Shown in pieces: positions 8,071 through 33,420 of a stretch of DNA of 64,000 nt. The notes under the pieces are model-generated. The model worked only from the letters and a program-made list of their open reading frames with translations. It searched no databases and was not told where the DNA came from. The position numbers were made by a program, and so were the translations under genes. The stretch is taken from contig OZ025257.1 in NCBI GenBank assembly GCA_964019135.1, positions 19,309,971 through 19,373,970 of the forward strand, in the 5' to 3' direction. The DNA is from Arenicola marina (taxonomy: Eukaryota > Annelida > Polychaeta > Arenicolidae). Numbering within the stretch: the first letter of the stretch is position 1; the number at the start of each line of letters is the position of its first letter.

Positions 8071-8080
8071 TATAAAAGGA
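8071..8080 (+). promoter_or_regulatory. TATA box candidate, copy 1
   Basis: TATAAAAGGA follows CCGCAACCGG. The same motif in the same context recurs in copies 3 and 4 and lies inside a block conserved on both sides. No gene downstream is recognised, so promoter function is inferred only from the motif and its retention. Confidence 0.4.
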
Positions 8081-9113: not shown

Positions 9114-9137
9114 AGGTCATGTGACAGGTCATGTGAC
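9114..9137. promoter_or_regulatory. Tandem AGGTCATGTGAC motif, copy 1
   Basis: AGGTCATGTGAC occurs twice without a gap, preceded 22 bases upstream by TCACGTGA. AGGTCA is the classic nuclear-receptor half site, here as a direct repeat with six bases between halves. The tandem is unchanged in copies 2 and 3. Function is inferred. Confidence 0.35.
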
Positions 9138-10856: not shown

Positions 10857-10922
10857 GCTTCGCATGGTGGAGATAGTTCTCCCGTCTGTGTATTCGTGAC
10901 AACAGCGTGGTTCGAAACACGT
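10857..10922 (+). mobile_element. tRNA-derived SINE-like head, copy 1
   Basis: The segment shows a decayed tRNA promoter pattern: an A-box-like GCATGGTGG, a CTCCCGTCTGTG arm and a B-box-like GTGGTTCGAAACAC. The better preserved version in copy 3 resembles tRNA-Asp. No poly-A tail or LINE-derived 3' part was identified. Confidence 0.4.
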
Positions 10923-11261
10923 GCTCATCGTCTATTTGTGAAGTAATAAAGCCAAGGTACAGCGGCTGGGCAACAAATGTAGCCAGGCTCTCGGCTTGAA
11001 ACAGGGAAGTGGCTACCTATATGATGTCTGGTTAAAGCTCCTGATAAATAATGGGACACGGGAACGGAGGTGTGCGTTGTCATGCGCCCGACATCAGACG
11101 GAAATGGAAACTGGGGTCATTTTCGGCTTCCTCCTTGAATGGCAATGTCACCATTATTGGTGGCACATTTACACACCAGTCAAAGCACATTCAATGTCGT
11201 CGGTGCCTGGCAAGGTATTTTTAACATAATGGTGTATCCGTCTCTGTTGTGGAGGCAAGAA

Positions 11262-11400
11262 TAATCTCTCGTTCTCTCGCTGTCTCTCCATGACACGCGG
11301 TCTCTTTCCCTCTCCCTGTCTCGTTCTCTCTCTCACTCTCTCTCCCTCGACCACTTCCTCTCTGGGTCTGTGTCTGTCTCGGCCTTCCTCTGCCACTGCC
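11262..11400. repeat. TC-rich microsatellite, copy 1
   Basis: An irregular run of CTCT, TCTC and CCTCT with interruptions such as GTCTGTGTCTGTC. Each of copies 1-4 has it at the same place in the unit, with different lengths. It also creates spurious reading frames on both strands. Confidence 0.9.
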
Positions 11401-12076
11401 TTCCCAATCCGCCCATCTTGTTCGTTATCGGAAGCGTGAGGTGGGAACCTTTTTTTCCCTTTAAGTACGTTTCGTATATGTATGTATATCATCATGAATG
11501 TAAAAACAATATAATGATCATACAACACATATCAGATAAAATAAAAGTAAAACATTCATTACACATAAATACTATACGAAGCTTGTCCTAATGTTAACCG
11601 TCGTGCCTTAATATTATGGATCACATAGCTGACAGTTTGTCAGAACAAGTTTTACAGGTGGATTTGAATCAAATGGAATTAAATAACAGGGTAAGTTACT
11701 GACGCAGCAAGAGTTTGCCGAAAGAAACTGTCTATTTTTATATATCTGTGCTTTTAAATGACAAAGAGTGGATATTTCGTGTACCACGTTGGAATTCAAC
11801 CGACCACCAGTTTGTTTCGACGTCACCACATTGTGGTTGCCAATATGAACAATAATCTTTCCGCAGGTTCACTTGTCAAGACCAAATTTGATGAACTGGT
11901 GTGATTGGCCGGCTCATATTTTCATGTGTTATTTGTAATAACATAGCACAAGTAGCACAAGTACTATGGGGTAAATTCTGAATTGATTTTCAACGAAAAA
12001 GCCACGAATAGACTACATCCCCTCGACATCCTTCTGATTCATATGTTCCTGGCTCAGATGGTTACGCGATGTCGGA

Positions 12077-12150
12077 TACATCTGGCCCATCTGGCATATT
12101 TTGCATATCTGGCACGTTTGGCACAAATGGCAAGTCTAACACATCTGGTG
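12077..12150. repeat. 9-bp minisatellite (CATCTGGCA type), copy 1
   Basis: Degenerate copies of CATCTGGCA, CATTTGGCA and CATATCTGGCA. The length varies between array copies. On the minus strand it reads as proline and aspartate repeats, but the frame is not kept between copies. Confidence 0.85.
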
Positions 12151-12759
12151 CATTACAATGATTCCCCCGAAACCCACCACGAAACACAAAAAAACAAAGT
12201 AGTCCAATCAAAGAAAAAACACAGTGCCAGAAAATTTAACTAGCGTCAAGTGTAGAGTTCACGCTGCACAAATGGCAGTTCCGGAAACTGCAGGGTTTGC
12301 CCTCGGTGTGGCAATTAGGTTTGTGACCCAATGTGACCGGAATACATCGGGTCTCGAAAGCGGGAGCCGGGAACTGGAATGGTAAGTGATGTTGCCTCAT
12401 TTCATTGGCCGAAAGTGCCCTCAAGCTGCCCTGCAACACGGCAAGGAAGCAAGGTCACGGGGGTTGCTCAAGGTCAGGTTCGCGATGCGTCGTGTTTAAT
12501 TCCGCGCTACCTGGCAGAACCAATGGATGCCGAATAAATGTCAAGTTCGCGCTTTGTGTCGTATGGACGATCATTATTATTGGCGAATATAAGTAAAGGA
12601 TAAATGTTGATAATATGATTAGGGGTAGCAAATGCTGGGCAGCTGCAAACTATACAATAACAACATTACAGCGGACGATCACTACTAAATAGGGTAACGT
12701 CCGCAGCATTGCCCACAGCCGGGCCCAAGAAGCGAAGCAGATATCCATACAATATAAGA

Positions 12760-13226
12760 GTCTGATCGATTAAAGAATATGAGCGATGAATCAATCGCGT
12801 CTGACGAGTTGGAAGAGTAGTTTCAATATGGCCAACCGAAACTCACTTACAGCTCACAATTTATCGCCCACGTCCAAATATTATCGCCCAACTTCAACAG
12901 ATAGATACATGGTTAACTGCATATATGGGCCCTCATATACCTGACACATATCTATCAAATAACAAAATATAAGGTCTTACATATGTTTCACATAATTTTA
13001 TTCATTGTTTCATTCATGTATTTTCCCTAAAACCTATTTTGTCACACTGAGCGAATATTGCATACTAGCTTCCCCCATCTTGGAATAGCATCTACCTCTC
13101 CTCTCTTCCACCTACCTGGGCGGAAGAGCAGAAGAGGTCTTCTTGGAATAGAAGAGGCAAAACGATCGTACTGCATGCACTCTTCCAGAAGAGGTAGACT
13201 TTGGAAGAGGCGAATGGATCACGCCC
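12760..13226. mobile_element. 467-bp insertion private to copy 1
   Basis: Copies 2 and 4 run straight through this point, while copy 1 has 467 extra bases flanked on both sides by TAAGA (12,755-12,759 and 13,227-13,231), which fits a 5-bp target duplication. The inner ends, GTCTGATCGATT and the reverse complement GCGTGATCCATT, agree at 9 of 12 positions with a two-base offset, a weak inverted end. The interior has several GGAAGAG and CTCTTCC repeats and no clear protein. Confidence 0.55.
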
Positions 13227-14196
13227 TAAGAATGCCCCATTGTGGCCCATTTATCTGGAAGCTTTGTGCTGTCGCAATGACTATAGGCGACATTTTCTCT
13301 TGATTTTGCCCGTTCTTCACCGCGCCTATTTGGTCACATGACAGTTCAGCCCCGCCGGAAACCCTCAGCTTCACGGAGCCGACATTTCGCCTGGCCAAAA
13401 AAAGTTTGACATTGCAAAATAGCTTTTATGATTAACGCCAGAAAACCTCAATCGACCATAAATGAAGCAATTTGCGCATATCGTAAGGGGACAGATCGAG
13501 AGGCTTGATCGCGGATCGTTACCAGAACGCACGTGTCAGATCCTGCCTCCAGAGTATGAACGCTGAAAATTGGCCCTCGTGCCATGGCAATTCAACTATT
13601 ATAGCTTGAGCTAATGCTGCCATTGTAATATTAAGGCATCAATTTCTGTATTTCCGTTAATTAAATATCGTACCCTGTTAGCCGATAATGCTGCACAGAT
13701 TCACGATATTGATACCTTCCAAGACTTGTACAAGTTGTTGAGACAAAAACTAAATATGCCTTTGTTGGTACAAATGTGACGAAAATCACGAAAAAACACA
13801 TGAAGTCTATTGTTGAATAAGTTGAATATACTAAAGGCAAAACAGGTTTACGAAGACAAGCAAATGTAGTAAAACTAAATGTTGTTGTTCACCTATATTG
13901 CCCAACTAAAATTAATCGATGCGTCATTTACGACAAAGCTTAGATGGGGGAGAAGGAAGAGAAACTGTGGAGCAAAGTAATTTCTCCAGGGCGGCGCCTA
14001 GAGCGCGCTGGACAACACAGAAAGAACGGAATAAAAACATAAGGCGGCTCAAGTGACAAAACCGAGACGGTTAATTAAATCCGGAAACAGGTCGAAAGAA
14101 GAACAACGCATAAGAGGTAAAAAACCATGAGAAACATGATGATAAATGCCGACTGGAAGACATGGGGGTGAAGCGTGAGGGTAATATAAAAAAAAG

Positions 14197-14364
14197 TACA
14201 CTGCGGGATTCCACAGACCACCATCAGGAGTGAGAGGTGACGATTGCTATCATGATACTAAACAAGGGTATTGGCTGCCCCAGCTAATCCAATCGTATCA
14301 TGGCACTATCCCGGAGTACATTGCATCTGTAGACGATCGAGAGACTGCCGCTGACTTTAATTGA
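14197..14364 (+). other. Conserved short reading frame (GYWLPQ), copy 1
   Basis: Fifty-five codons are open and end in TGA at 14,362. The frame reads TAGFHRPPSGVRGDD, then CYHDTKQGYWLPQ, then LIQSYHG, and ends TAADFN. Related frames occur in copies 2, 3 and 4, and copy 2 ends TAADSN at the matching place. I recognise no protein family. It could be a last exon of an ancestral gene in the unit or chance retention in rather young copies. Confidence 0.3.
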
Positions 14365-15296
14365 ATCGGATTCGCATTCTAGAGGGGGAGGTCGGGAGTA
14401 CCTTTCCGATCTTCGCAACTAGCATCCAGGATTTTTGGGAGGTTTTGCGGTTAGCGGTTTTTCTGGCAATATTGGTGGATCGTTGTACGCACCAAACCTG
14501 GTTCAGCGCGACCCTTTACCTACTTACAACCATCCGTCATAGCAGTGAATTCCTCGATATTTGCGATATCACTTAAAACAGGCAAGGGGTAATACGGGGA
14601 TTCAGTGCAAACATCTATTTTGCAAAGCAAGTGTGCTTTCATTCATTTATGATGAGGAATAACATGACACCCTATACATAATGTCACGCGAAAATGCTGT
14701 CCGTTTGTATTATTAAGTAGGTAAAGAGGCCACATACTAACAGAACAATTTTAGAAAATATCTTTCCTGTTATATGGCTCTTCCGGCCTACAGTTATATT
14801 AAAAGTTGTGGTTATATTTGCGGATGGATAAAAGACGCAGGCTTTCGTGCGACCGACGCAGGCTATGGTGACCCAAGCAATTATCGAGAGGGGAGGAAGG
14901 GAGGTGGCGGAGGAGGGCGAACCTTGCACTGGTAGCATTAAACTGTTTTCCCGTCGACTGTAGGCACATCACCTATTCTAATAATATGTATGTCCAGGGA
15001 GCGTTAACCAGTGATATAAGATAAAATTATAGATGTATTCCTTCACCAGATAGCGCCACATCCATGAGCTTTCTACGGCATTCGGGTCAGAGATGAAATT
15101 CTCCCACTGGTTCCGGCAAGCTATACACACAAATGCACGCAGGCCAACGAATGCATATATATTGGAGGCTTGGGCTAAAATCGCGGGACGACAATGGGAG
15201 CAAGGCTATTTTTGTCCGGTATGAACGTGTACTTTTTTTCATTGAGGAAATCGTCTATAATTGATCTTGGTGGAGAAAATGTTGTGGTAATCGATG

Positions 15297-15430
15297 ACCA
15301 CCACCCCTGCCCTCGCCTCCCCTCCCCTCCCTTCCGCCCCGCCCCCGCCCCTCCCCTCCTATCCGTTCGGCCCTGCCCCCGCCCCTTTCCTCCCCTCCCT
15401 TCGGCCCTCCCGTCGCCCCTTCCTGAGCCG
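15297..15430. repeat. C-rich tract, copy 1
   Basis: The plus strand is almost all C and T with CCCCTCCC, TTCGGCC and CGCCCC phrases. It recurs in copies 2-4 as direct repeats of a TTCGGCCCTGCCCC-like phrase in different numbers. Reading frames here are skew artefacts. Confidence 0.85.
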
Positions 15431-17282
15431 CACGTGACCTTGGTCGGTCGTGCCCGCCCCCAGTTTGCCGCACACCCACCGAACCCTGAGCTCATCACGT
15501 GTCGGCTGGCGTACCGGAAGTCGCAATCAGCCGAATGTCAGCTAAGTTCGCCCGGGTTCCTTAATTCGTTCCACTCCTCGATTTCGATACGACCCGTTCT
15601 GTTTTGTTTCTGTTGTGTTTTTTTGTCGTTTTGGTTTTGTATTTATTCCTTTTGCATATAGAACGTCGCATATCCAAGCGATAAAAGATGCCCTTTTCAC
15701 TAGTCCAGGTTTCAGGGCAACGAACGTCTTATGGTTGTCTCGGTATTGCGGACGAGAGCATGGCAGTCATGCTTTTGGCAGACGCTGGTCATAAAACAAG
15801 AGGCGTGGCAGCTCAAAAACGTCTCCCCGCCAGCACGCGACGCAGCCACTTTGGGGTAGGGTCATAAACTGCCGCTCGACAAACAGTGGGTGCCCCAGAC
15901 CGCCGCTAATGTATATATTGAGGACGTAACGGGAGTAAAACACCCAGCGTGCATCAAGTATAAAAAGAATCGAAACGCGCACGGTTATAGCATAGATTCA
16001 ATTAAATGTTACTCTAAAATAACTAAGTTACGCACAACGAATCACACGCAACATAAAAATAACTTCATCAAAAATAAATTGATTACAAATGAAATTACAT
16101 ATTTTTACATCACTTACAGCGTCAACTGTTCGTCAAGTACCATTTCTGTTTCTGTTTCTTTCGTAAACATCCTAAATATTGACTCGATGTTACTTAGTGA
16201 TGGTATGTGTGTTTCAAAGCTGATTTACAACACTTACAAAAATATATTTCTGTCAATCTTACATATCAAACGTGTTAGACGTTCAGTATTTAACTCATTG
16301 TTTCACTTGAAAGTGTCGCATGCATATTTTTCTTACTAGACAACAATAAATAATACTATCCCAACATTCCAGTGTTATATTCATACGTCACCCGTTTGTT
16401 TTCTTGTCGTATCTTTATATTTGTGGTCAATGTTTACTTGTAATTCTATGTTGTCTCGTTCTGAACTGTATACATTTTTGTTGTTAAGCAGCGTGTTTAT
16501 AACTACACTAATCACAAGATGCAATAAAGCAAACACATATCTTGTTAAAAAGAATGCAAGACTTTAAATGGTATGTCCAAATGCGTCAATGCGTTTAATT
16601 CTTTACACTAAACATAGTGATTGCGATGAATGGTACTGCAATGATATAAACACGACACTGTTTCATATCAATGGGACTATATGTATTGACGTATCATAAG
16701 TTGCGATAAAATGGCTCATGATATCATTTTTTTACGAAGAAGATCTCAAATAGGTTACCAACGACTTAAACACATCAGGGCGCACTGGTGTATTTATTTC
16801 GTTCTTGCATTTTTGCGTGTGTCATGAGTTTCCTAGCCTCCACCTTCACGGTCTGTCTAAACACGTAATGGCTAGCTGCGTTTCGGTGCACGTTACTACA
16901 AAGAATCATTGGGATGAATAAATTGATATCTTGATCGTTCGTTTTGATATACTCCTAGTACAAACGTTACATGTCCGATTCATCGCGCGATATTTTATCA
17001 ACGTTTCAGGGGTGTATCGTTAATATTCTACACGTATCGAATAGTGTGCGTGGTGCAAACTATTTACATCAGAAACTCGATGATATGTGACAACAGAGTC
17101 TTATGTTGTTACATCATTTCCAATTACCTCGCACAATACTATGTTTATTCAACTGATGGATGTACAATAAGTTGGATATTCAGAATAAGTAAATGCACGG
17201 AACACAAAGCACGGAGTTGTTTTTCCTTCATTTATTACATACATGAATATTAAATACAACACACAAACACACTTAATTTTGT

Positions 17283-17358
17283 ACATAAACATACATGAAC
17301 ACTAAATTCTAGACATAGTTACATGAACACACATTTCTAGATATATTTACATAAACAC
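17283..17358. repeat. 28-bp repeat just downstream of the polymerase
   Basis: Units beginning ACATGAACAC or ACATAAACAC start at 17,293, 17,321 and 17,349, with a TTCTAGA-like phrase between them. It is AT-rich and lies in the presumed 3' region of the polymerase gene. No role is visible. Confidence 0.75.
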
Positions 17359-17366
17359 CTCATTCA

Positions 17367-20300
17367 TTATACGGACAGAGGATCATTTCTAACGGTTTGG
17401 TATGTATTCCGTCGCTTTGCACCACCCGCTTTATGCAAAAATATGAAAAGCCAACTTTTCTTGGCTATACGTACACATGCGATTGTTTCGCATTCGAAAC
17501 CCTCTATTGATAACACTCTTCGTGTTTTTGATTTTAATACCCCTTCGAATATGGTACGTGGATTCTGAATCCTGTGTTTTTGTACACCTTTGGACGTGAG
17601 CTTTGTTGTGTCGGGGGAGTCTAAAACATAACACTTGCTGCTAAGCCCCGAAAAATATGTCCCATGTCCCTCTGCTTTGAATAGGCCTGGGGTCCTAGCA
17701 TCTCTGGTTTTATGATCCGAACAACATTCCCTGGGGAAAAAATGTTCTTGTGGGTCAATATCTTCTTGATGACATGATCCCAACACCCTCTTATCATGTT
17801 CTCTCCTAGCTGCGTCTGTCATTGCTTCTCGAAGTGTTGGGGTGGCTATGGCAAAGTACATACTATCTGTATCTGTTGTCAAAGGGACAGTCTTTTGAAT
17901 TGGGATGTCTCTTCTGATACAATCGTAATAAAATTGGAGCATCCGCAGTTAGGCCAGAGATAGTATGAAAAATCCCGTGGTGATTGGTATATCAAATACT
18001 ATTCGTTTTTTCTCGCTTTCAATCTCATAATAGTCTGGTGCAACTTCTGTAGCTCTTTGGAATCTTGGATCATTGATCTTGGCACATGCCTTGGCACGGC
18101 TTTGTACGTAACAAATATCACGGAAGCGTTCTTTCGACATGAGACTGGATCCGTAAGCTGAGTTACCAATATTTTTGGCGATGAAAGCCCTGACGGAATG
18201 AGCGGCATTGCCATCAGCATTACGTCTAGTGTCTGTCACATATCGAGTGAACGGTAAAAAACATTTCTGCTTCATATTTTCCACCGTCTGATATACTCGA
18301 GTAACTACCAATCCGTGTTGAAGATACCACCGTAATATAGGAGTTGATAGCAGTACTGTCTTAGCTTGAAGGCCACTTACGAGCAGTCTTTTGGGGGCTT
18401 GAGATAACCCCCGGGATTCTACCCATTCTTGCATATGGCTTCCCCATTTATCGAAGGGTATGTCCATCGTACAAAACAGTGGGGAATAATCCTCATAATA
18501 TTCTTTCGGGGACAAACCCCCAGCCTTGGCCCTCATCTCTGCATCTTCCCACACTTCTGGGACCTCGATGTCTACTTCTATCATTCCAAATAGTGATCCA
18601 TCTCTCACTCCATCAAGGATAGTGTTTTCACTGACTTCTCCTAAACCTTGCTTCTGTGTAAACTGAGGTCTACGCATGCGGATGAATTCTTGCAATTCTG
18701 GTTGCGTTTTGATTTGTCGTTTGAACTCACATTCCCACATTTCCACCACTCTGTAGCCACACTGCTTTAAATACGAAGTACGATCGTCTGTCCGTTTACG
18801 TCTTTGTTCTAACAGAGTCTTATTTTTTTCTGTTTTAGGGGACATGCAGTCACATCCGTGGTAATAACATCCTTGAAATTCATAAACAGTCTGTGATACT
18901 GAATCAAACCCGTCAACTATGTATCGTCCTATTCTTGTTTCTACTCCTTGGTTTAACTGATGACGAATCGTTAACTGAGGGTCTTTAGTCATCAACCACT
19001 CCATCCAATCAAACAAATGTTGAGAGAGGGAGGATTTCTGAGCTTTGAACTTATCTTTTGCACGTCTTCTAATGAATGCTCCCACGGGAAATTCCTGTTG
19101 TAGACAATATAAATACAAAGCATTGGCATCCCAACCTGCGATGGCTTTACACGGGTACATGGGATCATTACGGAGGTTTGTTTTGTCTACCTCATGATGA
19201 CGGGTGAAGATAATGGAAGGACCACCCATGAGATTCGCCTTCATGGTGTGATGTAAATCTTCATCTCTCTGATCAATTAAAGGTATAGCCGCTTTCTGCT
19301 TTTGCGCGCACCTCGCTAAGAGACATCGCGCTACCCCAGCAGTGGAAAAGCATTCTTTAAAACAATCGACCCCTTGTTCTACAAACAACTCTCGCAAGTT
19401 AGTGACTGCTGTCACCATGGGTGCCACGTCAAGATTATTATACCACACGAGATAATCACGCATTGTAGACATGTTCTCTTTTTGCCATATATCTTGCAAA
19501 CGTTTATACTCCTGTTCTATTTCCTGCGATGTATTCCCAAGGGTATTCAAACCTTTCAGTGAGGAATAAAATGCTTCCGAGGGTGGTAAGTGTGTTTCAT
19601 TCAACTGTTCTATGCTTGAAAACCATTCATATGGAAATGTGCCTTTCTGCTCTTCCACTTCAAATGCTCTCAGAAAGGCTGCGTATGTCGTACCCATGGG
19701 AACATAATTCATGACATCAAGTAATTTAAACTTGCTATTGGCCACACATAAATATTGATTTGCCTTCTTGATAACGAAGGCATTCTTCTCTTCGTGCATC
19801 TCCATAGCTTTGGTAATGCTTTGTTTGATCAAATTTAGGTCATAGCTGCCTGAATTGTAACCTATGACTATCATTTGCTGCATATACATTGCAAATTTTG
19901 CTTTTATACGACATATATACTGGAACATTTTCTTCCTGCCAGACTCATTCGCTTCCTCTCCTGTGTCTTCCATCCCCAAGACTCGCGCGGTTTCTTCTTC
20001 CTCGTCCATATGTTCATGTCCCCTGAAGAATAGTCGTTGTATTCGACGTTCCACTCGTTATCTCGTTGCAGTGAGGATTGAAACCGGTAATATGAGTTTT
20101 CTTCCACTTCCATATCTTTCTGGTTGTCCTCCTCTTGTACTGTGGTGTTCCATTTTTCTTTCAGATCTTCCAGTTATTGTACCACAGAGCCCCATTTTTC
20201 AGAAGCCAAGGCGTAGGCATGAGATTTTTGATGAATGAATTTTGTGCAAATAATCAATCATCTGCCGTACCAATTGTTCTTCGCATTCGTCGATAAAACA

Positions 20301-21392
20301 GTGAGGAGTCAGAAATCCTGGCACATTGGAACAGATAGAGACCGATATGGGTTTATGAGTGTAATCCCACTGCAACTTTCCAGTGTTATCCGAAGTGTCT
20401 TTGGTGAGGAGTGCTTCCATATCATACGTGGCGAACCACGGATAGAAACGGTCCTTGGTATCGACGTGAATGTTTAGTTCCGCCAGTTCATCAAATATTG
20501 TTTTGGGAGGGGCAGCAAATCCCCCTTTCATGACATACTGGGTCTTGTTGGAACATACGCGTTGATGTCTCACCAAGTCACATGACTTCCTGAAATGACA
20601 TTCACACGTTTGGCATTGATATTTTTCCGTAAACGATTGGATGTCCTTGATATATGAGAGATGGTTTCCGTATGCATTCAGAAACAGATCTTTTCTCTCG
20701 TGCGCATCCATATATCGACCGCATGATCTGTAGAGTGATTCCGCCACACCTTCTTCGCTTAAATGATACACGTGGATATTTACATTGAAACACGCTTCCA
20801 AATGAGGGAGGTCGTGCATATCAACCCCTTGGAATCCTTGTCGCAAAGGAGGATCAGATGGAACATCGTGTTTCTTGTGATATGTACACCACTCTTGCAA
20901 AAGAGTGATGGCGCTATCTTCCAGATTATCTTTCCGACCCCTATAATAGGCGAGACATCGGAAGAAACATAATCTGTCGCGATGTATTCTATGCGATGCA
21001 TCTCTCTGAAATGTGATAAGACGTTTTTTCTCCGATAGATAAGCGGGGAGTTCCACCTCTCCCTCACCCATGGTGTAACTTGTTCTGGTAACGTCATACT
21101 GGAGGTTGGATAGGAAGGATAGTCGCCATTTGGTGTTGGGACGCTGATTGCTGACTCGCTCATTGACATCTAGTCTATTCAATCGTTTCTTGATGTGATC
21201 CATATCTGAAGGCCGACTGATGATGAGGGGTTTGTCAAACAGATAATTGTTCTGATGGGGATAAAAATATCTCACTTCTTCCCCGTTGTAGAGAAACATC
21301 CCAGGCGTCACATTCACTTTGAACGCGTTCCCTTCCTGTTCCACAATGGTCCGGAGGTGGCTCATCATGTCAATTGGTTGCTTAGGGTCCAC
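17367..21392 (-). pseudogene. Type-B DNA polymerase of the mobile element (fossil)
   Basis: The product is a family-B DNA polymerase of the organellar and viral type (DNA_pol_B_2-like), which would copy the element's own DNA. Parts in order from the N-terminus: a leader with a CFFRCLAYY phrase and, about 80 residues later, a NHLSYI phrase, resembling the Cys and His regions of OTU-like domains near such polymerases; one C2H2-type finger; exonuclease motif I (YDMEAL, near 20,425), motif II (YNSGSYDLNLI, near 19,845) and motif III (YNNLDV); a GCYYHGCDC phrase near 18,860; polymerase motif A (DANALYLY, near 19,115), motif B (KNIGNSAYG, near 18,160) and motif C (DTDSMYF, near 17,865). It is broken, with about two interruptions over roughly 1,300 codons. 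It follows the zinc-finger gene closely on the same strand. The family call is firm; the element class is less so. Confidence 0.9.
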
Positions 21393-21401
21393 GGGAAAGT
21401 T

Positions 21402-22151
21402 CTATCGACCCGTTAACTTCCCCGGACGAGTCTGATGTCCGCCCAACACGACACAGGCAGGTTTTGTGTATGACGCGTGCAGGGTTTCATCCACGCGACC
21501 GTCTTGTCCCATCCACGGTTCGTTACCCGGGAGAAACGGTTGGGAGTGGGGCACCCCTGCCCCCGTCTGGTGTTTCTCTTGTCTATGAAGATAAAACTCA
21601 CGCCAGCTATTGTAGGTGTGATTACATTCGCGGCATCGAACCTTCTTCACCTCTGGGATATGCCTCGCCCGGCATTTGTGACGTGGCAACTCACCTCCAG
21701 TACAGAATATACGTTCGCATTGCGGACATGTCTTCTGACGGGCGTGCGCCGCCATATGTCTCTGATATATCAATTTCCTTTCTATCACCTTTTCACATTG
21801 GGGACATTGATACTGTGTCTCTTCGTGCGTTTTCATGTGCTTCTTGAGACATAGCTTGTTTCTAAATTCTACGTTGCACTTGGGACACACGTAACTGCGA
21901 TGCTTTTTCTTGTGGATACGTAACGCCTGCTCGGTTGAAAAAGTGGCGCCACATTGCGGGCATACCAGTGCCGGCGGATCGTCATGTCTTCTTTCGTGAC
22001 GTCTTTTCTGCGCTGCTGTCTTGAAGGGACACTGACATATACGGCAAGCATACACCGGACCTAGTCCCACATCGTGCACCGGCATGTGGGCTGCCAGATT
22101 AGTGTCATTGCGGCATTGGAGTGAACACTGTTGACATCTGAAGCTATCCAT
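21402..22151 (-). CDS. Seven-finger C2H2 zinc-finger protein of the mobile element (fossil)
   Basis: The frame is open for 249 codons from an ATG at 22,151. It holds seven C2H2 fingers in tandem, the first CQQCSLQC with HMPVH and the last CRECNHTY with HRQEKH, each in the CxxC...HxxxH or close form. A tail of about 60 residues without fingers follows. Such fingers normally bind DNA. The gene ends a few bases before the polymerase on the same strand, and PolB elements of this kind are known to carry C2H2 fingers next to or ahead of the polymerase, so it probably served replication or end recognition of the element. The frame itself looks whole. A host zinc-finger gene is less likely because of the tight spacing and the finger within the polymerase leader. 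Confidence 0.85.
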   Translation of the reverse strand: MDSFRCQQCSLQCRNDTNLAAHMPVHDVGLGPVYACRICQCPFKTAAQKRRHERRHDDPPALVCPQCGATFSTEQALRIHKKKHRSYVCPKCNVEFRNKLCLKKHMKTHEETQYQCPQCEKVIERKLIYQRHMAAHARQKTCPQCERIFCTGGELPRHKCRARHIPEVKKVRCRECNHTYNSWREFYLHRQEKHQTGAGVPHSQPFLPGNEPWMGQDGRVDETLHASYTKPACVVLGGHQTRPGKLTGR

Positions 22152-22348
22152 TCCGTTGTCGTGGTCGATATGATTACAACGCTGGTATTAGCATCCAGAA
22201 TTTTCCCCGCCCCCCAGTTCCCCTTCTCTGATTGTCTAAAAGTATTCCCTGCCTCTGAAAACATTCTTAGTCATCCCCTCATTCCCTCGTTGGCTCTCAA
22301 ACATGTAACACCTCCTCCGTCCGAGTCATCACCACGCTGACATAATTT

Positions 22349-22600
22349 CTAAAAATAGAGCAAGCGGGCATCTCCCTCCCATATCCCCCTCAACGCTCCA
22401 TCCACCCTGCTTTAGCCAAACATTGACGCCATTGCTAAAACTAGTGCATACGCGCCCCCAACCCCCTCAGTCAACCGCCTGCTCTCGAACCATCTAGCTC
22501 TTTCCTCGCCACGTCATCACTAAAAATAGAGCATGCGTGCATAACCACTACACCCCAAGCGGCTGTGTCTCTCACCATCTGTTCCCTTGGCCAATTACAA
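22349..22600. repeat. Degenerate 86-bp tandem repeat upstream of the zinc-finger gene
   Basis: CTAAAAATAGAGCA at 22,349, CTAAAACTAGTGCA at 22,435 and CTAAAAATAGAGCATGCG at 22,520 mark three units spaced 86 and 85 bases. Later parts of the units share ACCATCT-like and GCTCT-like words. The repeat lies 200-450 bases upstream of the minus-strand zinc-finger start, so it could belong to its control region. Confidence 0.55.
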
Positions 22601-23500
22601 CACCGGCGATATGGAAAGAATGGCATTGAAACTTAATTCTCTCCAGCCAACTCAGTTTGATTTAGCGAGGGTGAAAACAAACCAGTGGTGGGGATCTGAC
22701 TCATTTTAGCTGTCTTTGGTAGAAATGTTCCGTCAGTAAATGATACTGACTGAGACTGATCACACAGCACCCTCGCTGTGTGCAAAAACTTCAGTTACCC
22801 CGTCATTCGCATTATTGTGGTCTAAGAACGGCCCGCGTGCTTTGTAAAAGGGGATCGAGGATAAACTAACGGGTACATAAATCTTCGACAAACCCCCAAA
22901 GTAGTCTGATTAAACACTCAAAACTGTCGAAACGCGACTACATCTTAATCTTTAGACTAGCTATTGGAGTAATCTCAACAGAACATCCAACGTACGTGAT
23001 GTCCGACAAAACTATTAGTTATAAGTAAAACGAGCCTATCACTTTCTATTGAAGCCATACATTTAAAAATACCAACTACACAGAGAAAAACACCAAACCT
23101 TATGTTTTCAATCGAAAACGGGGAACTGAATTCAATATTGTCTTTACATTATCGTCTGATCACTCCCATCTCGAAATCCGATGAACAGTCAGCTGGGGTG
23201 AACTGCGTACACCCCCATTACATCCACCCGCCTCCCCTCACCTTCAAGCCCCCCCCAAAAAGAGACAAGTCTGAACACGCTCACTGGTGACTAGTAGTGC
23301 AGCTGGCTTTCCCTCGCGACAAGCTTCGGCGACTCCACTGGTCTGGGTAGCCTCTCAAATTAATGTATTGGTGTCCTTGGGGTGTGGGCGTGGGGGAGGC
23401 GGGTGGGAGGGGGAGTACGTCCCTCACTCATAGGTTGTGGTAAGGAGCGGCGACATGCTAAATAGGGTGGGACGCGGTGAACGCGGTGAATGCGGAAGAG

Positions 23501-23656
23501 GTGTAGGAAAAACGGTCGGACTAGGAAGGAGGGGGAAAAAGGGGCTGAGGGAGGGCGACTAATTTACAAGATAACTGCTGTCCTTACAGTTATCTGCCAA
23601 TGACACATCTTAACGTCACTACATGATTGTGAATACCGTTCACCGTCATGGTTGGG
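23501..23656. repeat. Direct repeat A of the element's right part, first copy
   Basis: It starts GTGTAGGAAAAACGGTCGGA and ends TCATGGTTGGG, and matches 23,962-24,135 with scattered substitutions and small gaps. The two copies lie about 300 bases apart in the same orientation. Confidence 0.85.
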
Positions 23657-23961
23657 TGAGGGTAGGAGGGGATCGGCGTTCGAGCGGGAGGGGCGGGGGC
23701 AGTAATATCGGTCGCTGGATGAGGAGCAGGGGGTTGGCGCCCTCTTATTGTAAGAGAAAAGAGTAATGACAGTTGTTTGATGAGACAGTCTATTATTTCA
23801 ATACTAATAAGCGCCTGTATGCTCTCCACCTCAGGTAGTTTTTCATCTGCAAGCAATTAATACGTCGACCAGAAAGGTAAATGGGGTGACCTCTATAACA
23901 TAAGCAACCAGCTGTCAGGTATTAATTGTCTTCTCTAACCGCTCCGCCGTGGGAGCTATAG

Positions 23962-24135
23962 GTGTAGGAATAACGGTCGGACTAGGAGGGAGGGGGAGAA
24001 AGGGGTATCGGGGCTGAGCGAGGGCGACTGATTTGACAAGATAATTATGAACTACTGTCCTTGCAGTTAACCCGCGATGACACATCCATGACGTCACTCC
24101 GTGATTGTGAAATACCGTTCACTATCATGGTTGGG
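23962..24135. repeat. Direct repeat A of the element's right part, second copy
   Basis: It starts GTGTAGGAATAACGGTCGGA and ends TCATGGTTGGG. It is about 18 bases longer than the first copy through small insertions. A G-rich stretch with a GTTACCCCCAAGAAGC doublet near 24,354-24,380 follows before array copy 2 resumes. Confidence 0.85.
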
Positions 24136-24730
24136 AGGGTGTAGTAAGGGGTCTAGCTAGTTGAGTGGGAGGGGGGGGGGCGTGAACAGGGGTGGGGTTC
24201 ATGGGGGTGGGGAGTTTTGCTTGGGGAAGGGTAGTTTACGGGAGGGGTGGGGGGTATAGGATATACATGTGGGGAATAGGGGGGAGGGGGGGGTACAAAC
24301 CTTTACGCGCCAGGTGGCCATAGGAGACCGGCGCGTATGCGCGCCGACAAAAGCGTTACCCCCAAGAAGCGTTACCCCCAGCGATTTACGAATTATCCTG
24401 ACGCAGCTTCTACTACTGATTGCCCCCTGCCAATGACAGCCCATTACGCGTTCCCCCGCCAACATTTCTTCTCGGTGGTTCGGCCATAATGGGCGGTGTC
24501 TGCCAGAAACGTTCCTTTAATTAGCTTTTCGCCCGAGCCCGTCCCGGTTATCCTATGTTACTTTTCTTCTCCGTGATGCCTTCCATTTAGCTGAGCCCGA
24601 TGCTATAATATTATATCAACCAAAATAACAAGATTGGGTATCATTTACAAATTAGATGCCTGGTGGATTATCAGATTAGCACGATGGGTCCAAGGTTTGC
24701 TTTAGATAGCTAGACACAAAAAATCTCCGC

Positions 24731-24756
24731 GTGACGTCACCGTGCCTGTGACGTCA
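24731..24756. promoter_or_regulatory. Pair of CRE-like TGACGTCA sites, copy 2
   Basis: GTGACGTCAC at 24,731 and GTGACGTCAT at 24,748 lie just inside the right inverted arm. TGACGTCA is the consensus for CREB/ATF-type factors. Matching sites occur in copies 1 (6,491) and 4. Confidence 0.35.
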
Positions 24757-24806
24757 TTTGGGTCTTGATGTCAGCATAGCTCTGTGCTGGAGTTGTTGAC
24801 CCTCAA

Positions 24807-25157
24807 TGCAATTCGATGGTACCTGGGGGCGCCTGCATTTTAGCCAAGTTGAGGGAGGGTCGGCCATTATCATACAGCGCAACCCTAATGGGACACGCGT
24901 TGGTGGTGGAAGGGGCAATGGTGGGCACAGGTTTCCCCCCCACATCGAGGTCCCAGAGGAAGAGGCAACAGAAGCCATTCACATTTACGGGTGGAAAAAT
25001 ATCGCTCCGGATTGGTTTCCTTGATAGTACCTAATGCTATAGGCGTTTAAGTTGCATATTATGTTTTTCATTTAATCTACATATTAAATTTACCTTTTCG
25101 GGAACGGCATTAGAAAACGTGAAACTGGAAACATAAGAACATTGTTATATTGAGAAG
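24807..25157. mobile_element. Right inverted arm of the long-ended element, copy 2
   Basis: The reverse complement of this segment aligns with the left arm in copy 1 (5,007-5,330) over its whole length, including GACCTCRATGTGGGGG, GATAATGGC and CATAATATGCAACTTAA. The left arm of this copy is absent because copy 2 begins inside the element. Confidence 0.85.
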
Positions 25158-25555
25158 CCGAATGGCAGATGCGCTATGGATGTTTATTTATATACTCTGT
25201 ATATATATTTATGTATGTTTATATATTATGTAACTGCTTGACTACTTATATTCCATCTAAGGAAACGAACGATGGCATCAAACGGAGGTGCAAAGGTCAT
25301 ACTATTATCATGCGGCTTGGCAGAGATAGCGTCTCATGAATCAAGCAAATAAATGGGCAGGCCTTCCTATTCTTTCTATTCTTTCTGTTCACTCAGCCAT
25401 TTTTCAGATATTTATGCATCATGCTGGTGAATTAAAAGGAAATTACTCGCAAACCAAAAGACGTCGCCTAGCTTCTAAATGCCAATTAGGAAAAAACGCA
25501 CTTCTGTGGTCAAAAAACCAACATTTGCCGAACGACGTTAATTTTACTCCAAGCA

Positions 25556-25628
25556 GCGCAAAAACCAGCGCGCATACAGGCAGATCTAATACAAAAACCG
25601 ATTCCCAGTGATTCATTTAACCCGAAAT
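25556..25628. repeat. 73-bp segment, source copy
   Basis: It begins GCGCAAAAACCAGCGCGCAT and ends TTTAACCCGAAAT, sits in its normal place in the unit, and is repeated 626 bases downstream at 26,182. Confidence 0.9.
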
Positions 25629-26181
25629 CCCTACTAGACCAAAATTGCTGCTGTTATTGCATCACGTTTTATCGCGACAGATGTCATTACCGCCAGAGAG
25701 GCAGGCATTACGTCTATCAATCTCTTGGTCGCCCAATCATGGACAGCTGTTGATGACAACGACGGCCAGCGGACGAGATGAAGAAGGATAGATGGATCGA
25801 TAAGTGAATTTATCTATGATGAAACACTTCCGCCCTTTAGTTACAATGCACCAAGCATCACTCCGGGAGAATGCGAATATGAGCTAGGTATAAATGAAGA
25901 AGAATAGTCTAATTTAAGTGGATAGACCTTATCATTCTTTGTTTGCAAATATGGTTAAACAATGCTCTTTCGTCCCTAGTATTATCCACCCTTGTGTCGC
26001 AAGGATTTAGAGAAGGTGTCGATAAATTATTTAAATATCTACTATATTGAAACAAAATATTATAAAGAAATATATCTTAGACCAGCTTGTGAGCATTCCT
26101 TCACCGGTAACGTTTCGTCGATACATCATTACGACATGATGAATTACGGCCAAATTCATGCGAATGACACGTATTGTTTTT

Positions 26182-26254
26182 GCGCAAAAACCAGCGCGCA
26201 CACAGGCAGATCTAATGCAAAAACCGATTCCCAGTGATTCATTTAACCCGAAAT
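26182..26254. repeat. 73-bp segment, duplicated copy at a deletion junction
   Basis: It matches 25,556-25,628 with two substitutions, and lies exactly where about 1.6 kb of the unit is missing. Copy 3 has no such segment at this place. It looks like filler DNA templated from nearby during break repair. Confidence 0.85.
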
Positions 26255-26426
26255 GACAAATTTGCATTCCTTCATAACATAGCGAGGAAGGTCGAATCTT
26301 TGGCAGGTGACTCTTAATAATGGTAAATTTATAGCCCATCAAATGGCGAATTATAAATATCCTCATGGAAACATGTAAAAGAACAGGATGAATGGCGAAT
26401 GTACCGCGTGATATACTGGTGTCATC

Positions 26427-26450
26427 AGGTCATGTGACAGGTCATGTGAC
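26427..26450. promoter_or_regulatory. Tandem AGGTCATGTGAC motif, copy 2
   Basis: The two motifs are identical to those in copies 1 and 3. The upstream word here is CGCGTGAT rather than CACGTGAT. Confidence 0.35.
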
Positions 26451-27690
26451 ATCGTTCTCCTGCCTGGCGACAGTGATGGAGTCCTGCTGACACAAGGCAC
26501 TCACTCAAACCACAGACTAGGAATTGACTTCTTTGCTAATAGCCAGATTTAGATGAATGTTGTTTGAAGTTCAGAACATTGACCGTAGCTTCATGGGGCA
26601 AGAATTACATCAGTGGTAGTAAAATTGTGCCTTTCCAGTTTGTTTTACTCATAAAATGAGTGGTGGGATTAAGCTCCTGGCCGGCTGCTCAAATTAAGTG
26701 CAATCTGCCACAGGAGACATTTTTTCCTTTTTTTTCCTTTCGGCCATCATGCGAATTGTGACTTTATTACATGGCCCACAGCATACTCCCCATCCCCCCC
26801 CCACCTCGCTACCCTTCAACCCACCACCCTACCTGCTGCCTGTCCACAACATCAGAAGGTTGGTATATCTATAATGTACTACCTTATCGTCATATATTGC
26901 GCTATGTATGAAGTAATGCAAATACGCCTCATCTTACCAACATCTCTAGGCAGTTCTATGTTACTGTCAATGGGGCGGTACATTGCGCTTTAGACAAACG
27001 GTCCCAACTTCGATGTTCGATCGTGCAAGGTCGATCGAATGTGGAATCCAAACACATGGGTGTATGTTGCAGACAAAACATGTGTGATACTTAAGGTTTT
27101 TGTGTTTTTTACTTGCAAGGAAAACGAAATTTGGTCAAGATCAGACTTCAGATACCTTAAACTCATGAAATATGTAAGTGGAAGGGAAGGGAAGGGGACG
27201 GGGTAAGGAGGGGGCGGTGGGTCGTGGGTTATATGTCACTGGAGGGAATACTTTGGGAGCACATCCAGAACATAGATGTGACGTTGCAAGTGCTGTTTCA
27301 TCCAGGCAGGAATGAAATACGTTATGGCATAAGAGGATAAATAACAGATTATCTCCTTTTTGTTTCTCGGGCACTTTCAACGATCCATGTCATGGGAATA
27401 ACCAAATGTGAAGATTTATATGCTGGTCATACTGGGGACAATATGACAGCCTCGGTGCACTTAGTGACGCCAACGAAACGTTAAAGCCAGCCTTTTAACA
27501 CGCCAATAACAAATTCGTTATCTGCTATGTTATTTCGTCCAGCGTATTTAATTACTGGGGTATGGCTCTGCCGATGTATATTGTCAGCATTAAGCTGCCA
27601 GCTCGTTTCAATTTCCACATGAAAGCTTCATTTCGACTAAGAGCTTAGAGTCCAAATGAATTTGAGATGAGTTTTATTTTGCAGCTTTAT

Positions 27691-28370
27691 TACCCATTAT
27701 TATCATATCAGTATTATGTTCTCAGCTCATTCGAAAGAAGGTTGCCCAACACTAACGATTAACAATGCACAAACGGCCGCCATTTTATTGAGATATTTTC
27801 CAATAATGCCGCACTTGCATTCAAAATGCAATGGAAATTAAGTTTGACATGGCGCGTGTCATCACACAACCAAAGGCACAAAGATCAATTCATACAATCC
27901 AATCGAGATAACCAGATAATCCGACTAATTACTTCTACTTCTACGAGAGAAAGCCCATTATTATCATACCAGTAGTATTTGTTTCTGCTAATTGGAAAGA
28001 CAGTTGTCCAACGCTAACGATTAACAATACAAAAACGGTCGAAATGTTATAGATACTTGCATTAAAAATGCAATGCAAATTAAAAGTTTGTAAATGCAAG
28101 TTTGACATGGCGCGCTTCATTACACAACAAAACTAAATTGAACACGTGGCCCCGTAATAAGTTGCATTCATATCTAATGCGTTGGTGACCATACAAAGCA
28201 ACATACATAAGTTCATACCGTAGCAGAATAGAATATAACAGAAGAGGTAGAAGAGCGCGAGACTAATGGTTGGTGGATTAGTAACATTAGAAGATGCGGG
28301 AGGATGACGCTTGAAGATCAATGCATACAATGCAATCAAGATAACCGGATAACCCGACAATTACTCTTAG
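27691..28370. repeat. Internal tandem duplication in copy 2
   Basis: Two versions of the same stretch follow each other: 27,691-27,950 and 27,953-28,370. Both begin CCCATTATTATCAT, both hold CTAACGATTAACAAT and GACATGGCGCG, and both end ATAACC-GATAA-CCGAC. The first lacks a middle part that encodes the membrane-like frame. Copies 3 and 4 have one version only. Confidence 0.75.
28133..28360 (-). CDS. Small hydrophobic reading frame, copy 2
   Basis: The frame encodes 75 residues beginning MSGYPVILIALYALIF, with a first hydrophobic stretch, two N-glycosylation-type sites (NVT, NAT) and a long second hydrophobic stretch containing LFYLFCYILFCYGMNLC. It could form one or two membrane segments. 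The copy 3 frame has the same length with no gap. I recognise no family. Against a real gene: the copies are only about 10 percent diverged, no upstream promoter or splice signal is evident, and the copy 4 version is altered at its start-distal end. Confidence 0.3.
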   Translation of the reverse strand: MSGYPVILIALYALIFKRHPPASSNVTNPPTISLALFYLFCYILFCYGMNLCMLLCMVTNALDMNATYYGATCSI

Positions 28371-28534
28371 AGAGAAAAGCGCCAGACTGAAACAGATCCA
28401 CATGTCTGGAATTGTGTTACTGGAGTTAACCCTACTCTCGTGTGAATAAAATTAATCTGCAAAATTATTCAATCTTGCAGGAGTCAGTTCGTTGGTAATG
28501 GTTCTGGACGGTTTACAGTAGGCATGTAGCGCTT

Positions 28535-28572
28535 CGGGTGGTGAGAATAGTTTCCCATTCTGTGTATTGGGA
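28535..28572 (+). mobile_element. tRNA-derived head, partial, copy 2
   Basis: It keeps the A-box side and the CCCATTCTGTGTATT arm, but the B-box half found in copies 1, 3 and 4 is absent. Confidence 0.3.
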
Positions 28573-28828
28573 AGGAGACACGGGAACGGATGTTTTCGTT
28601 GTCATGTGACAGCGCATAATACGGAAATGGAAACTTTGGTCACATCCGGCTTCTTCCTCGAATGGTCGTCACCATTAGTGATGGCACAGACACAGCCATC
28701 TCACCGCCAGGATGTGCTGTGTGGACTGATTTACACAGCAATCAATGCACAATTAATGCCGTCGGTGCCTGGCACGGTATTATTAACGTAATGGTGTCTT
28801 CGTCTCTATTATGGAGGCAATGATAATC

Positions 28829-29010
28829 TCGCTCTCTCCTTCTCTCGCTGTCTGTGCATGAATCTCTGTCTCTTTGCCTCTCCCTGTCTCTCTCTCTCCT
28901 CCTCGCTCTCTCTTTCTATCTTTCCCTCTCTCCCTCTCGTTGTCTCTTCCCCTCTGTCTGTGAATCTCTCTCCCTCTGTTTCGGTCGCCCTCTGCCACTG
29001 TCTGTCTCTC
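28829..29010. repeat. TC-rich microsatellite, copy 2
   Basis: An interrupted CTCT and TCCCTCTC run at the same unit position as in copies 1, 3 and 4. Confidence 0.9.
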
Positions 29011-30934
29011 CTGTTCGTTTTGAGCAAAGTACCTGGTGGGACTTTGTGAGATGAGAACAGGTGGATTCCATTTGCTTGCCCCAGGATCAAAGCTTGTTGA
29101 TGCTTAGTCCTAGGGTTGAAGACCAAAAAGCTGGGGATCCGGCGTCTACTATTCCTAAAATCGGTTTTCCTCAAATCGCTAATAAGTCTCCATCATATTG
29201 TCCCACATGCTTCTATTCACAAACCAAACATTTATGTTGCTGTAAACCATCAATGTTTGGCCGCCGTGCAGGCCCTGTCTGCTTAAGTTTTTGGCTGCTA
29301 GCTTGGAACTTTCGGAAATAATATTTCGTTAAGGTTCTGAACAATTAACTGTAAATACAGGCATGTGGTATTCATTCCTTGAACAATAACTAACATCTTA
29401 ATTTAAAGTACTAATGCCTCGATAATAATATGTACGATTCTCGACAAAATTCCACGACATGATGCAATTCTTCTAGACACTGTTAATTGAAAGTCCATTA
29501 AACGACATGTATTCAAGTTTCTCCGGGCACTCGATAATGACTTATTGCGTTGAATACGGAATCGTCTAATATTGAAACAGCCGACTGGGGTGTTCACGTG
29601 TAATCACTTTTCGCAAAGAACCCGGACTTCTCGTCTATACAAGACGTTCCAACGGCCTCATGTCTTTGCACGGTCGGTAAGCTCAAGCCTCAGTGCATTG
29701 TCTCCGCTCCAAGGTCAAGGACACTTCTGGTGGATAGTCAGTGCCATGTGTGGAATACGAATTCCGATTACTCTGTAGTCTCGTTTCCAACCGAGGTGTT
29801 GCGGAGGAGGGCTTTGTCTTGTGATTGGGGCAGCCGAGCAGCATCAGTTGAGTAATTAGCCTCCTCCCCTCATCGGTGGTCTTCGGCGTTAACACGGTCT
29901 GGGCTGTTGGCATGGATACGGCCCTTAGTCATACAAAGTGCCTTCCGCCGTTTCCGAGAGTACTGATCTGCATTCCCTCCTCGCAGACGTTTCATAAATG
30001 CAGATGTTCCAGCTTCCCACACCCGTACTTGGAGCACTGAATATGGAAGCGTGTGGTGGGAAGCTTTTTTTCACTTTTAGTACGTTTCGTATATGTATGT
30101 ATATCATCGTGTATGTAAACACAATATAATGATCATAAAACCCACATGAAATAAAAGGTAAACAGTCAGTCGACATAAATACAATACAAAGCTAGTCCTA
30201 ATGTTTTCCGTCGTGCCTTAATATTATGGATTACATAGCTGACATTTTGTCAAACAAGTTTTACAGGCGGAGTTGAATCAAATGGGATTAAATAACAGGG
30301 TTAGTTACTGACACAGCAAGATTTTGTAGAGAGAAACTGTCTATATTTAAATATCTGCAATTTCAAATGGGATAGAGCGGATATTTCGTGTACCAAGTCG
30401 GAATTCAAGCGGCCACCAGCTTTGTTTCGGCGTCACCACATTGTGGTTGTCAATATGAACAATAATCTCTCGGCCGGTTACCTTGTCAGGAGCAAATTTG
30501 ACGCACAGGTGTGAGTTGCCGGAAACTATGCATTGTCAGCATGGTGACAAAACATACGAGATTCACGGAGTAGCAAATGATAAAAGCCTTAAAAGATCAA
30601 GAGAAGACGGGGATAAACATAAAAGAGGATATGGCGCCTGGCAAGACTTGAAGGAAAGAAAGAACAATGATGGGGAACACCACCACCCCTATGCAAGTGT
30701 GTTGTTGTGTCCTACTTAACTAAACAGTTGGTACCACGCCAACACGATGTTAACAGGTAATTTATTTTAAAGAGAGAGGACAATTTCGTCTGACAAATAC
30801 ATAACCATTTGATTTCCTACTGGCATTCTGAATTTATTTTCAACGAAAAACCACTTACCCACGGATACACCACATCCCCTCGACATCATTTGGATTGATA
30901 TGTTCCTGGCTTAGATGGTTACGCGATGTCGAAT

Positions 30935-31016
30935 ACATCTGGCCCATCTGGCATTTCCGCCACATTTGGCATATATGGCACGTTTGGCACAAATGGAACA
31001 TCTAACACATCCGGTG
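30935..31016. repeat. 9-bp minisatellite, copy 2
   Basis: Words CATCTGGCC, CATCTGGCA, CATTTGGCA, TATATGGCA and CGTTTGGCA repeat with changes; six to eight loose units. Confidence 0.8.
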
Positions 31017-33334: not shown

Positions 33335-33420
33335 AACCAACCATCCCCTCCCCACCCCTCCATTCGGCCCTGCCCCGCCCATCTCCTCCCATCTCTTCGG
33401 CCCTACCCTCGCCCCTTCCT
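33335..33420. repeat. C-rich tract, copy 2
   Basis: CCCCTCCCCACCCCTCC followed by two CGGCCCT phrases. It is shorter than in copy 1. Confidence 0.8.

What the first reader, a model, noticed from the sequence alone, without database searches (positions are those of the whole stretch)
15952..24427. PolB block sits in an asymmetric gap of the array
A simple insertion would leave the unit continuing on the other side. Here copy 1 stops at the unit position equal to 46,945 in copy 3, and copy 2 resumes at the position equal to about 49,210, so about 2.2 kb of unit is missing and 8.5 kb of other sequence is present. Insertion with deletion, or capture during unequal exchange, are possible.
Basis: seen in the sequence. 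Interest (0 to 1): 0.72.

Follow-up and report, generated by a model that had tools for sequence, protein, structure and literature searches.

The report
Half of a palindromic Maverick element
The odd block inside this tandem array is one half of a mobile element that elsewhere in the same genome is a mirror-image palindrome of about 13-17 kb, and the copy looks as if it snapped at the mirror axis and lost its other half together with about 2.2 kb of neighbouring DNA.

Summary
The block is 15952-24417 (8,466 bp), and about 2.15-2.8 kb of array unit is absent. The block belongs to a dispersed repeat family. At seven loci the same sequence makes up both arms of 12.7-17.0 kb inverted palindromes. 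These seven, a non-coding palindrome and three more elements read only at their ends all have perfect 6-bp target duplications and ACTACT-3' ends (11 of 11), the end signature printed for Mavericks/Polintons. A full arm carries a zinc-finger PolB gene, 46-49% identical in its core to that of a canonical Polinton here. That Polinton's integrase and its ATPase- and capsid-like ORFs find nothing in the stretches read. In the window, the right junction is the intact outer terminus, and the left junction lies 1-3 bp from the palindrome's hairpin loop. In 14 of 16 configurations the second arm is absent or first interrupted within 160 nt of that axis. Most likely a palindrome inserted, broke at its axis, and lost one arm plus 2.2 kb of unit. 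Unequal exchange is not needed. Integration of a half-length hairpin molecule is not excluded.

The parts
15952..24417 (-). half (one arm) of a palindromic Maverick/Polinton-type element; PolB reads on the minus strand
   Evidence: the same stretch forms inverted arms of 12.7-17.0 kb palindromes at other loci
15950..15952 (.). left junction: array unit joined to the palindrome axis (hairpin tip), 2-bp overlap TG
15952..17366 (.). AT-rich axis-proximal region; longest stop-to-stop frame 128 aa in the window, 131 and 144 aa in two other arms
17367..17948 (-). PolB C-terminal piece (193 aa) with DTDS motif
   Evidence: same frame as the next piece, separated by an in-frame stop; motif name recalled
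17949..20057 (-). PolB core piece (702 aa): weak phage DNA polymerase match at residues 45-154, endonuclease-like insert; motifs A and B seen by eye
   Evidence: motif names recalled
20199..21401 (-). PolB N-terminal piece (400 aa), the region where polinton pPolBs carry an OTU-like domain (by eye only)
21402..22187 (-). C2H2 zinc-finger N-terminal piece (261 aa)
22188..24417 (.). outer part of the arm without a long ORF (longest 96 aa), shared with a non-coding palindromic relative; internal direct repeat 23499-23700/23960-24181
24410..24417 (.). outer terminus CTACTACT-3'
24418..24423 (.). surviving side of the presumed 6-bp target duplication (GATTGC); its left partner is missing
4879..15951 (.). 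array copy 1 up to the left junction
24418..36674 (.). array copy 2 after the right junction

Best explanation
A palindromic, PolB-only relative of Mavericks/Polintons inserted into an old tandem array, with integrase-type ends at both outer termini and a 6-bp target duplication. The chromosomal palindrome then broke at its axis (hairpin or cruciform tip). The surviving right half kept its axis end to within 1-3 bp. The left half was lost together with the left target duplication and about 2.2 kb of unit, and the end was joined with 2 bp of overlap. SHOWN: the family, the palindromes, the terminal motif, the target duplications at 11 other elements, the axis position of the left breakpoint, and clustering of second-arm interruptions at the axis in sister copies. 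INFERRED: that the window copy was once a full palindrome, the order of events, the break-and-join mechanism, and that an integrase acted in trans.
For: Both arms of sister elements map to window 15952-24417 in inverted orientation. The axis core is a 14-bp stem with a 3-nt loop in 12 of 21 axes read; the others are altered there. The window's left breakpoint is at that tip. 11 of 11 elements read at both outer ends have perfect 6-bp duplications and ACTACT-3' ends (7, 4); 8 of the 11 are shown to be palindromes, 3 were read at the ends only. In 14 of 16 configurations the second arm is absent or first interrupted within 160 nt of the axis of an ~8.4-kb arm (1.9% per copy under a uniform cut, a crude null). 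A 15.4-kb palindromic transgene in mice had small deletions and more complex products at its centre in about 35% of offspring, and lost symmetry stabilises it (PMC8701086, passages). Hairpin-capped ends are opened by Artemis in human cells and Sae2 with MRX in yeast (PMC7999016, passages).
Against: No allele with the intact palindrome or the empty site was seen, so the order is inferred. The 2-bp overlap occurs in 17% of random joins, so it proves nothing. Two other half-element configurations (C458; C20 25.99 Mb with a look-alike at 27.99 Mb) keep about 31-32 nt of the second arm, so an exact tip end is a single case. One half element ends far from the axis (C3 37.46 Mb, at window 17096), and one copy lost the axis itself (C12 23.95 Mb). 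Half-length hairpin integration would give the same product.
Confidence: 0.62

Rival explanations
1. Half-molecule integration: the element replicates through a hairpin-capped 8.5-kb duplex (one open terminus, one closed axis end). The integrase joined the only open terminus and the host joined the opened hairpin tip to a site 2.2 kb away, deleting the DNA between.
For: Breakpoint at the tip; arms within an element 98.6-99.9% alike while different elements average 88.8-91.1% outside the PolB core (96.6-97.7% in the core), as expected if each arm is copied from the other; AAV produces snapback duplex genomes (PMC8235507, start of abstract in a listing).
Against: Only one of three half-element configurations that keep the axis is tip-exact; all 11 elements read at both ends are two-ended with duplications; arm identity can also come from gene conversion.
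Confidence: 0.2
2. Ordinary deletion: a full or already shortened element inserted, and a later unrelated deletion removed its left part and 2.2 kb of unit, landing on the axis by accident.
For: Large indels are common between array copies; another half element (C3 37.46 Mb) ends at an internal position, window 17096.
Against: A uniformly placed breakpoint falls within 3 bp of the axis with probability about 4e-4, and sister copies are also interrupted near the axis.
Confidence: 0.1
3. Capture during unequal exchange between array units.
For: Tandem units that could misalign.
Against: Left junction lies at an element-specific site with no unit homology beyond 2 bp; element copies are dispersed over many contigs. 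A reciprocal unit product was not looked for.
Confidence: 0.03
4. Assembly artefact (foldback chimera or collapsed palindrome).
For: Perfect palindromes are hard to assemble; reads were not available; one sister axis runs into N (assembly gap or withheld, not known which).
Against: No N in the window; sister palindromes have matching duplications at both distant ends; their arms differ by 0.1-1.4%.
Confidence: 0.05

Closest known systems
Maverick/Polinton (vertebrate Mavericks, PMC8097293, passages)
   Same: 6-bp target duplications, (AGT)2//(ACT)2 termini, inverted repeats, PolB
   Different: whole element is a palindrome with convergent PolB arms; no integrase, ATPase, capsid or protease found in the palindromes read
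Canonical Polinton of the same genome, C12:5084550-5100201 (L038/L039)
   Same: zinc-finger PolB with endonuclease-like insert (by eye); 49% and 46% identical in two core parts, 35% over a longer N-terminal stretch
   Different: 1,017-bp TIRs, rve integrase, weak ATPase and C5-protease matches, further ORFs; no AGTAGTAG in the 20 kb read, and no matching 6-bp duplication at its TIR ends as mapped
Non-coding palindromic relative, C6:8793674-8811110 (L029/L030)
   Same: 17.4-kb palindrome, arms 99.2% alike, same outer 2.1 kb at 87%, same termini and 6-bp duplication
   Different: no PolB; interior of degenerate repeats, longest open frame listed 121 aa
Center-break rearrangement of a palindromic transgene in mice (PMC8701086, passages, citing Akgun 1997, Zhou 2001, Cunningham 2003, none of which I read)
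   Same: ~15-kb palindrome, deletions at the axis, asymmetry
   Different: experimental transgene; here a natural mobile element, and in the window the loss runs 2.2 kb into the flank
Snapback genomes of AAV (PMC8235507, start of abstract only)
   Same: mirror-image duplex genomes
   Different: a parvovirus; only an analogy for how palindromes could be copied

Membership tests
Maverick/Polinton | 6-bp target-site duplication | tested here: met
   11 of 11 elements read at both ends (7 palindromes; the non-coding palindrome and three elements read at the ends only); the window copy itself keeps only one side
Maverick/Polinton | terminal motif (AGT)2//(ACT)2 | tested here: met
   window 24410-24417 CTACTACT; ACTACT-3' at all 11 elements; motif printed in PMC8097293 (passages)
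[quoted passage not shown]
   46-49% identity in the core to the C12 PolB, which matches PF03175 above cut-off in the genome search (27.7 bits) but below it as an ORF piece (19.7 bits); direct Pfam match of the window pieces failed; weak phage DNA polymerase match E 7e-5. Protein priming itself was not tested
Maverick/Polinton | OTU-like domain in pPolB | tested here: inconclusive
   Cys and His motifs seen by eye in 20199-21401 only; no fold made; feature from PMC11071308 (passages)
Maverick/Polinton | retroviral-type (rve) integrase | tested here: not met
   C12 integrase finds nothing in the window or 22 stretches L009-L030 at E<=1e-3; by my eye on coordinates none of 130 integrase matches lies inside a listed palindrome (all capped lists)
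Maverick/Polinton | ATPase, protease, capsid genes | tested here: not met
   no hits in the palindromes read; the one protease hit (L018, C3:60474327-60474659) lies outside the element. The capsid label of the C12 query is mine: Pfam has no match
Maverick/Polinton | terminal inverted repeats | tested here: met
   arms of sister elements are inverted repeats; not testable on the one-armed window copy
Center-break product of a palindrome | breakpoint at the axis | tested here: met
   window breakpoint 1-3 bp from the loop
Center-break product of a palindrome | sister palindromes show central asymmetric deletions | tested here: met
   14 of 16 configurations, window included; one unknown (runs into N), one with a duplicated axis and full arms
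Center-break product of a palindrome | parental intact palindrome at the same locus | not testable with these tools
   needs reads or other individuals

The most novel reading that the evidence does not exclude
The palindrome is the element's working form. Strand-displacement replication by its own PolB releases a single strand that folds into a full-length hairpin with one terminus, and copying round the tip regenerates two identical arms. The element thus needs only one gene and one origin, borrows an integrase, and occasionally inserts as the hairpin half itself, as in the window.
Probability: 0.25. Interest if true: 0.82.

Novelty: new variant of a known kind. Interest (0 to 1): 0.57.

Why it matters
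Long near-perfect palindromes are unstable in experiments, yet here a dispersed mobile family of ~13-17 kb palindromes carries a polymerase gene with a low dN/dS in most comparisons and shows a natural series of axis interruptions. It would give a natural record of palindrome breakage in a genome and suggests a reduced, integrase-borrowing Maverick life style. It also explains why a gap in a tandem array can be asymmetric without unequal exchange.

Tried and rejected
Simple insertion into an intact unit: rejected, the unit is not continuous. Missing 2.2 kb hidden in the block: rejected. Unequal exchange: disfavoured. Block as a complete 8.5-kb element with two different ends: rejected because sister copies continue past 15952 into an inverted second arm, however short. 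Canonical Polinton with all genes: rejected for the window block and the palindromes read. Relatives of the 702-aa piece in IMG/VR: no match (one scan). RNA or tRNA genes in the window: none. Pfam on ten of the 17 ORFs of at least 95 aa listed around array copy 3: none, so the unit's content stays unknown. Pfam on PolB pieces gave only zinc fingers and a sub-threshold DUF559. Structure prediction was not run. Locus L054 was fetched and not analysed.

Rows dropped before the axis count: of 46 matches at 29 places, five places with diverged or partial axis pieces (C4, C19, C1 51.0 Mb, C3 8.78 Mb, C3 49.6 Mb) and C12 23.95 Mb, where the axis itself is deleted, were left out. The remaining 23 places were collapsed by eye into 16 configurations because several look like duplicates (two on C17; C20 25.99/27.99 Mb; three on C5; C371, C613 and two on C450). 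Letters were read at 21 of the 23, window included; two of the three C5 places were taken from coordinates only. The longer cut distances (73-152 nt) are alignment coordinates. The numbers 14 and 16, and the cut list, were typed by hand into. The half element at C3 37.46 Mb has no axis and is not among the 16.
Full report
The window lies in a eukaryote-size genome of 867 Mb. A tandem array of ~12.3-13.4 kb units, mostly 70-90% identical, runs from about 4,879 to the window's end. Copy 1 stops at 15951, equivalent to 34524, 46943 and 59776 in copies 2-4, and copy 2 resumes at 24418. The missing unit is about 2.15 kb measured in copy 2, 2.26 kb in copy 3 and 2.8 kb in copy 4. None of it is inside the block: best matches are 14-22 bp at E of 0.2 or worse.

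WHAT THE BLOCK IS. A 2.1-kb PolB piece of the block has 44 matches in the genome, itself included; the other 43 are 91-99% identical (40 of 76 candidates scored, so a lower bound). The axis-side piece has 76 matches, the next piece 41 and the outer piece 50, each with 40 candidates scored of 144, 359 and 592; many form inverted pairs. Mapping of fetched stretches shows that at seven loci (C7, C13, C6, C3 60.46 Mb, C17 17.47 Mb, C17 18.14 Mb, C20) all or part of the same 8.4-kb sequence lies in two inverted arms around an axis at window 15952, total 12.7-17.0 kb. All seven have perfect 6-bp duplications outside an ACTACT-3' terminus. Four more elements have them too: a non-coding palindrome at C6 8.79 Mb and three (C11, C3 7.71 Mb, C10 32.57 Mb) that I read only at their ends. 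Published vertebrate Mavericks most commonly carry 5'-(AGT)2//(ACT)2-3' ends and have 6-bp duplications (PMC8097293, passages read).

GENE CONTENT. The block carries one gene on the minus strand, in four open pieces of one frame (17367-17948, 17949-20057, 20199-21401, 21402-22187), so this copy is broken by in-frame stops. The N-terminal piece has C2H2 fingers. The core is 49% and 46% identical, in two parts, to the PolB of a Polinton at C12 5.09 Mb. That element has 1,017-bp TIRs and an rve integrase (E 2.5e-14); its ATPase and C5-protease matches are below Pfam's cut-offs, and its capsid-like ORF has no Pfam match, the label being mine. PF03175 scores above its cut-off in that family in the genome search, though not in the ORF piece tested, and the window pieces themselves do not match it. 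None of the C12 integrase, ATPase-like, capsid-like or protease-like ORFs is found in the palindromes read (22 stretches plus window; the one protease hit lies outside an element). By eye on coordinates, none of 130 integrase matches sits inside a listed palindrome; all these lists are capped, and a more diverged integrase would be missed.

SELECTION ON POLB. One search printed at most 14 rows per piece (of 17, 27, 25 and 16), and some loci appear twice because L002-L008 overlap later stretches. dN/dS against sister copies is 0.15-0.57 for the two C-terminal pieces. For the two N-terminal pieces it is 0.17-0.61 except in five rows of 0.84-1.43, all from the very close C7 copy with few changes. 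The polymerase therefore seems to have been selected while the family spread.

THE TWO JUNCTIONS. Right: the element ends at 24417 with CTACTACT, and unit sequence starts at 24418 with GATTGC, which I align to GCTTGT of copy 1. Left: unit ...CCAGCGTG runs into CATCAAGTATAAAAAG. In sister copies that sequence begins at the tip of the axis, a 14-bp stem with a 3-nt loop in 12 of 21 axes read. The overlap is 2 bp, which 17% of random joins would show. So the window holds one arm, from outer terminus to axis.

SISTER COPIES ARE INTERRUPTED AT THE AXIS TOO. One search (30 of 30 candidates scored) gave 46 matches at 29 places. After dropping six and collapsing likely duplicates by eye (see Tried and rejected), 16 configurations remain. 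In 14 the second arm is absent or first interrupted within 160 nt of the axis: window 1-3 nt, then about 6, 17, 22, 24, 31, 32, 43, 45, 73-83, 75, 87, 127 and 152 nt. One is unknown (runs into N) and one (C13) has full arms and a duplicated axis. Some cuts are small internal gaps (C7, about 106 bp), not loss of the arm. A uniform cut would fall within 160 nt in 1.9% of cases; this null ignores shared descent, so it is only a yardstick. Three configurations show no second-arm sequence past the axis region: window, C458, and C20 25.99 Mb with its look-alike; for C458 and C20 25.99 Mb this rests on the ~2.7 kb of flank read. Against the pattern, a half element at C3 37.46 Mb ends at window 17096, 1.1 kb from the axis, and C12 23.95 Mb lost the axis itself.

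MECHANISM. Arms of one element are 98.6-99.9% alike in the five segments of 0.8-1.1 kb compared. Different elements average 88.8-91.1% in the three outer segments but 96.6-97.7% in the two PolB-core segments, and single pairs reach 99.6%. Arms are thus copied from each other, either in replication or by conversion. A 15.4-kb palindromic transgene in mice suffered small deletions and more complex rearrangements at its centre in about 35% of offspring, and lost symmetry stabilised it (PMC8701086, passages). Hairpin-capped ends are opened by Artemis or Sae2-MRX (PMC7999016, passages). The simplest account of the asymmetric gap is insertion of the palindrome, breakage at its axis, loss of the left arm and 2.2 kb of unit, and end joining. 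Insertion of a half-length hairpin molecule gives the same product and cannot be excluded here.

LIMITS. No reads, no other individual, no species name. The trans integrase is an inference. I did not see the palindromic PolB-only form in the listings of four searches (34, 3, 0 and 43 papers held the terms, of which 20, 3, 0 and 12 were listed); these cover only open-licence texts. Of papers I saw passages of seven (PMC6431247, PMC12721341, PMC11071308, PMC2836005, PMC8097293, PMC8701086, PMC7999016) and the outline and abstract of PMC10766183; the rest only as listings.

Noticed in passing
window 17952-20057 (residues ~390-453 of the minus-strand piece): An endonuclease-like insert between polymerase motifs A and B (motifs by eye): phrog_13076 endonuclease E 5e-7, Vsr endonuclease structures E 0.04. 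The C12 Polinton shows a similar insert by eye.
   Followed up: partly
window 17952-20057 versus 20202-22187: Synonymous divergence from sister copies is about 0.03-0.06 in the PolB core but 0.10-0.37 in the N-terminal pieces, the C7 copy excepted (rows printed), which suggests mosaic elements sharing a recently spread inner core.
   Followed up: partly
L029/L030 (C6:8793674-8811110): Non-coding 17.4-kb palindrome with the same ends; a 1.8-kb interior piece has over 30 full-length copies at 96-99% identity (40 of 207 candidates scored).
   Followed up: partly
axes of sister copies, e.g. L023 near C17:18142692: The two arms usually start differently just outside the stem (ATAAAAAGAATCG versus ATATTTATACAAAAAGGAGTCG), and either type can be on the PolB-bearing side, reminiscent of flip/flop hairpin ends.
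   Followed up: partly
L013, C13:35505629-35506436: One element has its axis duplicated: two axes in a row between full arms.
   Followed up: no
window 24418-64000: Array units show no Pfam domain in ten ORFs tested and differ by many indels of 0.25-1.7 kb; function of the unit unknown.
   Followed up: partly
L038 4715-5464 minus (C12:5085715-5086464): The canonical Polinton carries an ORF with a PC4 coactivator domain match (E 2.1e-15).
   Followed up: no
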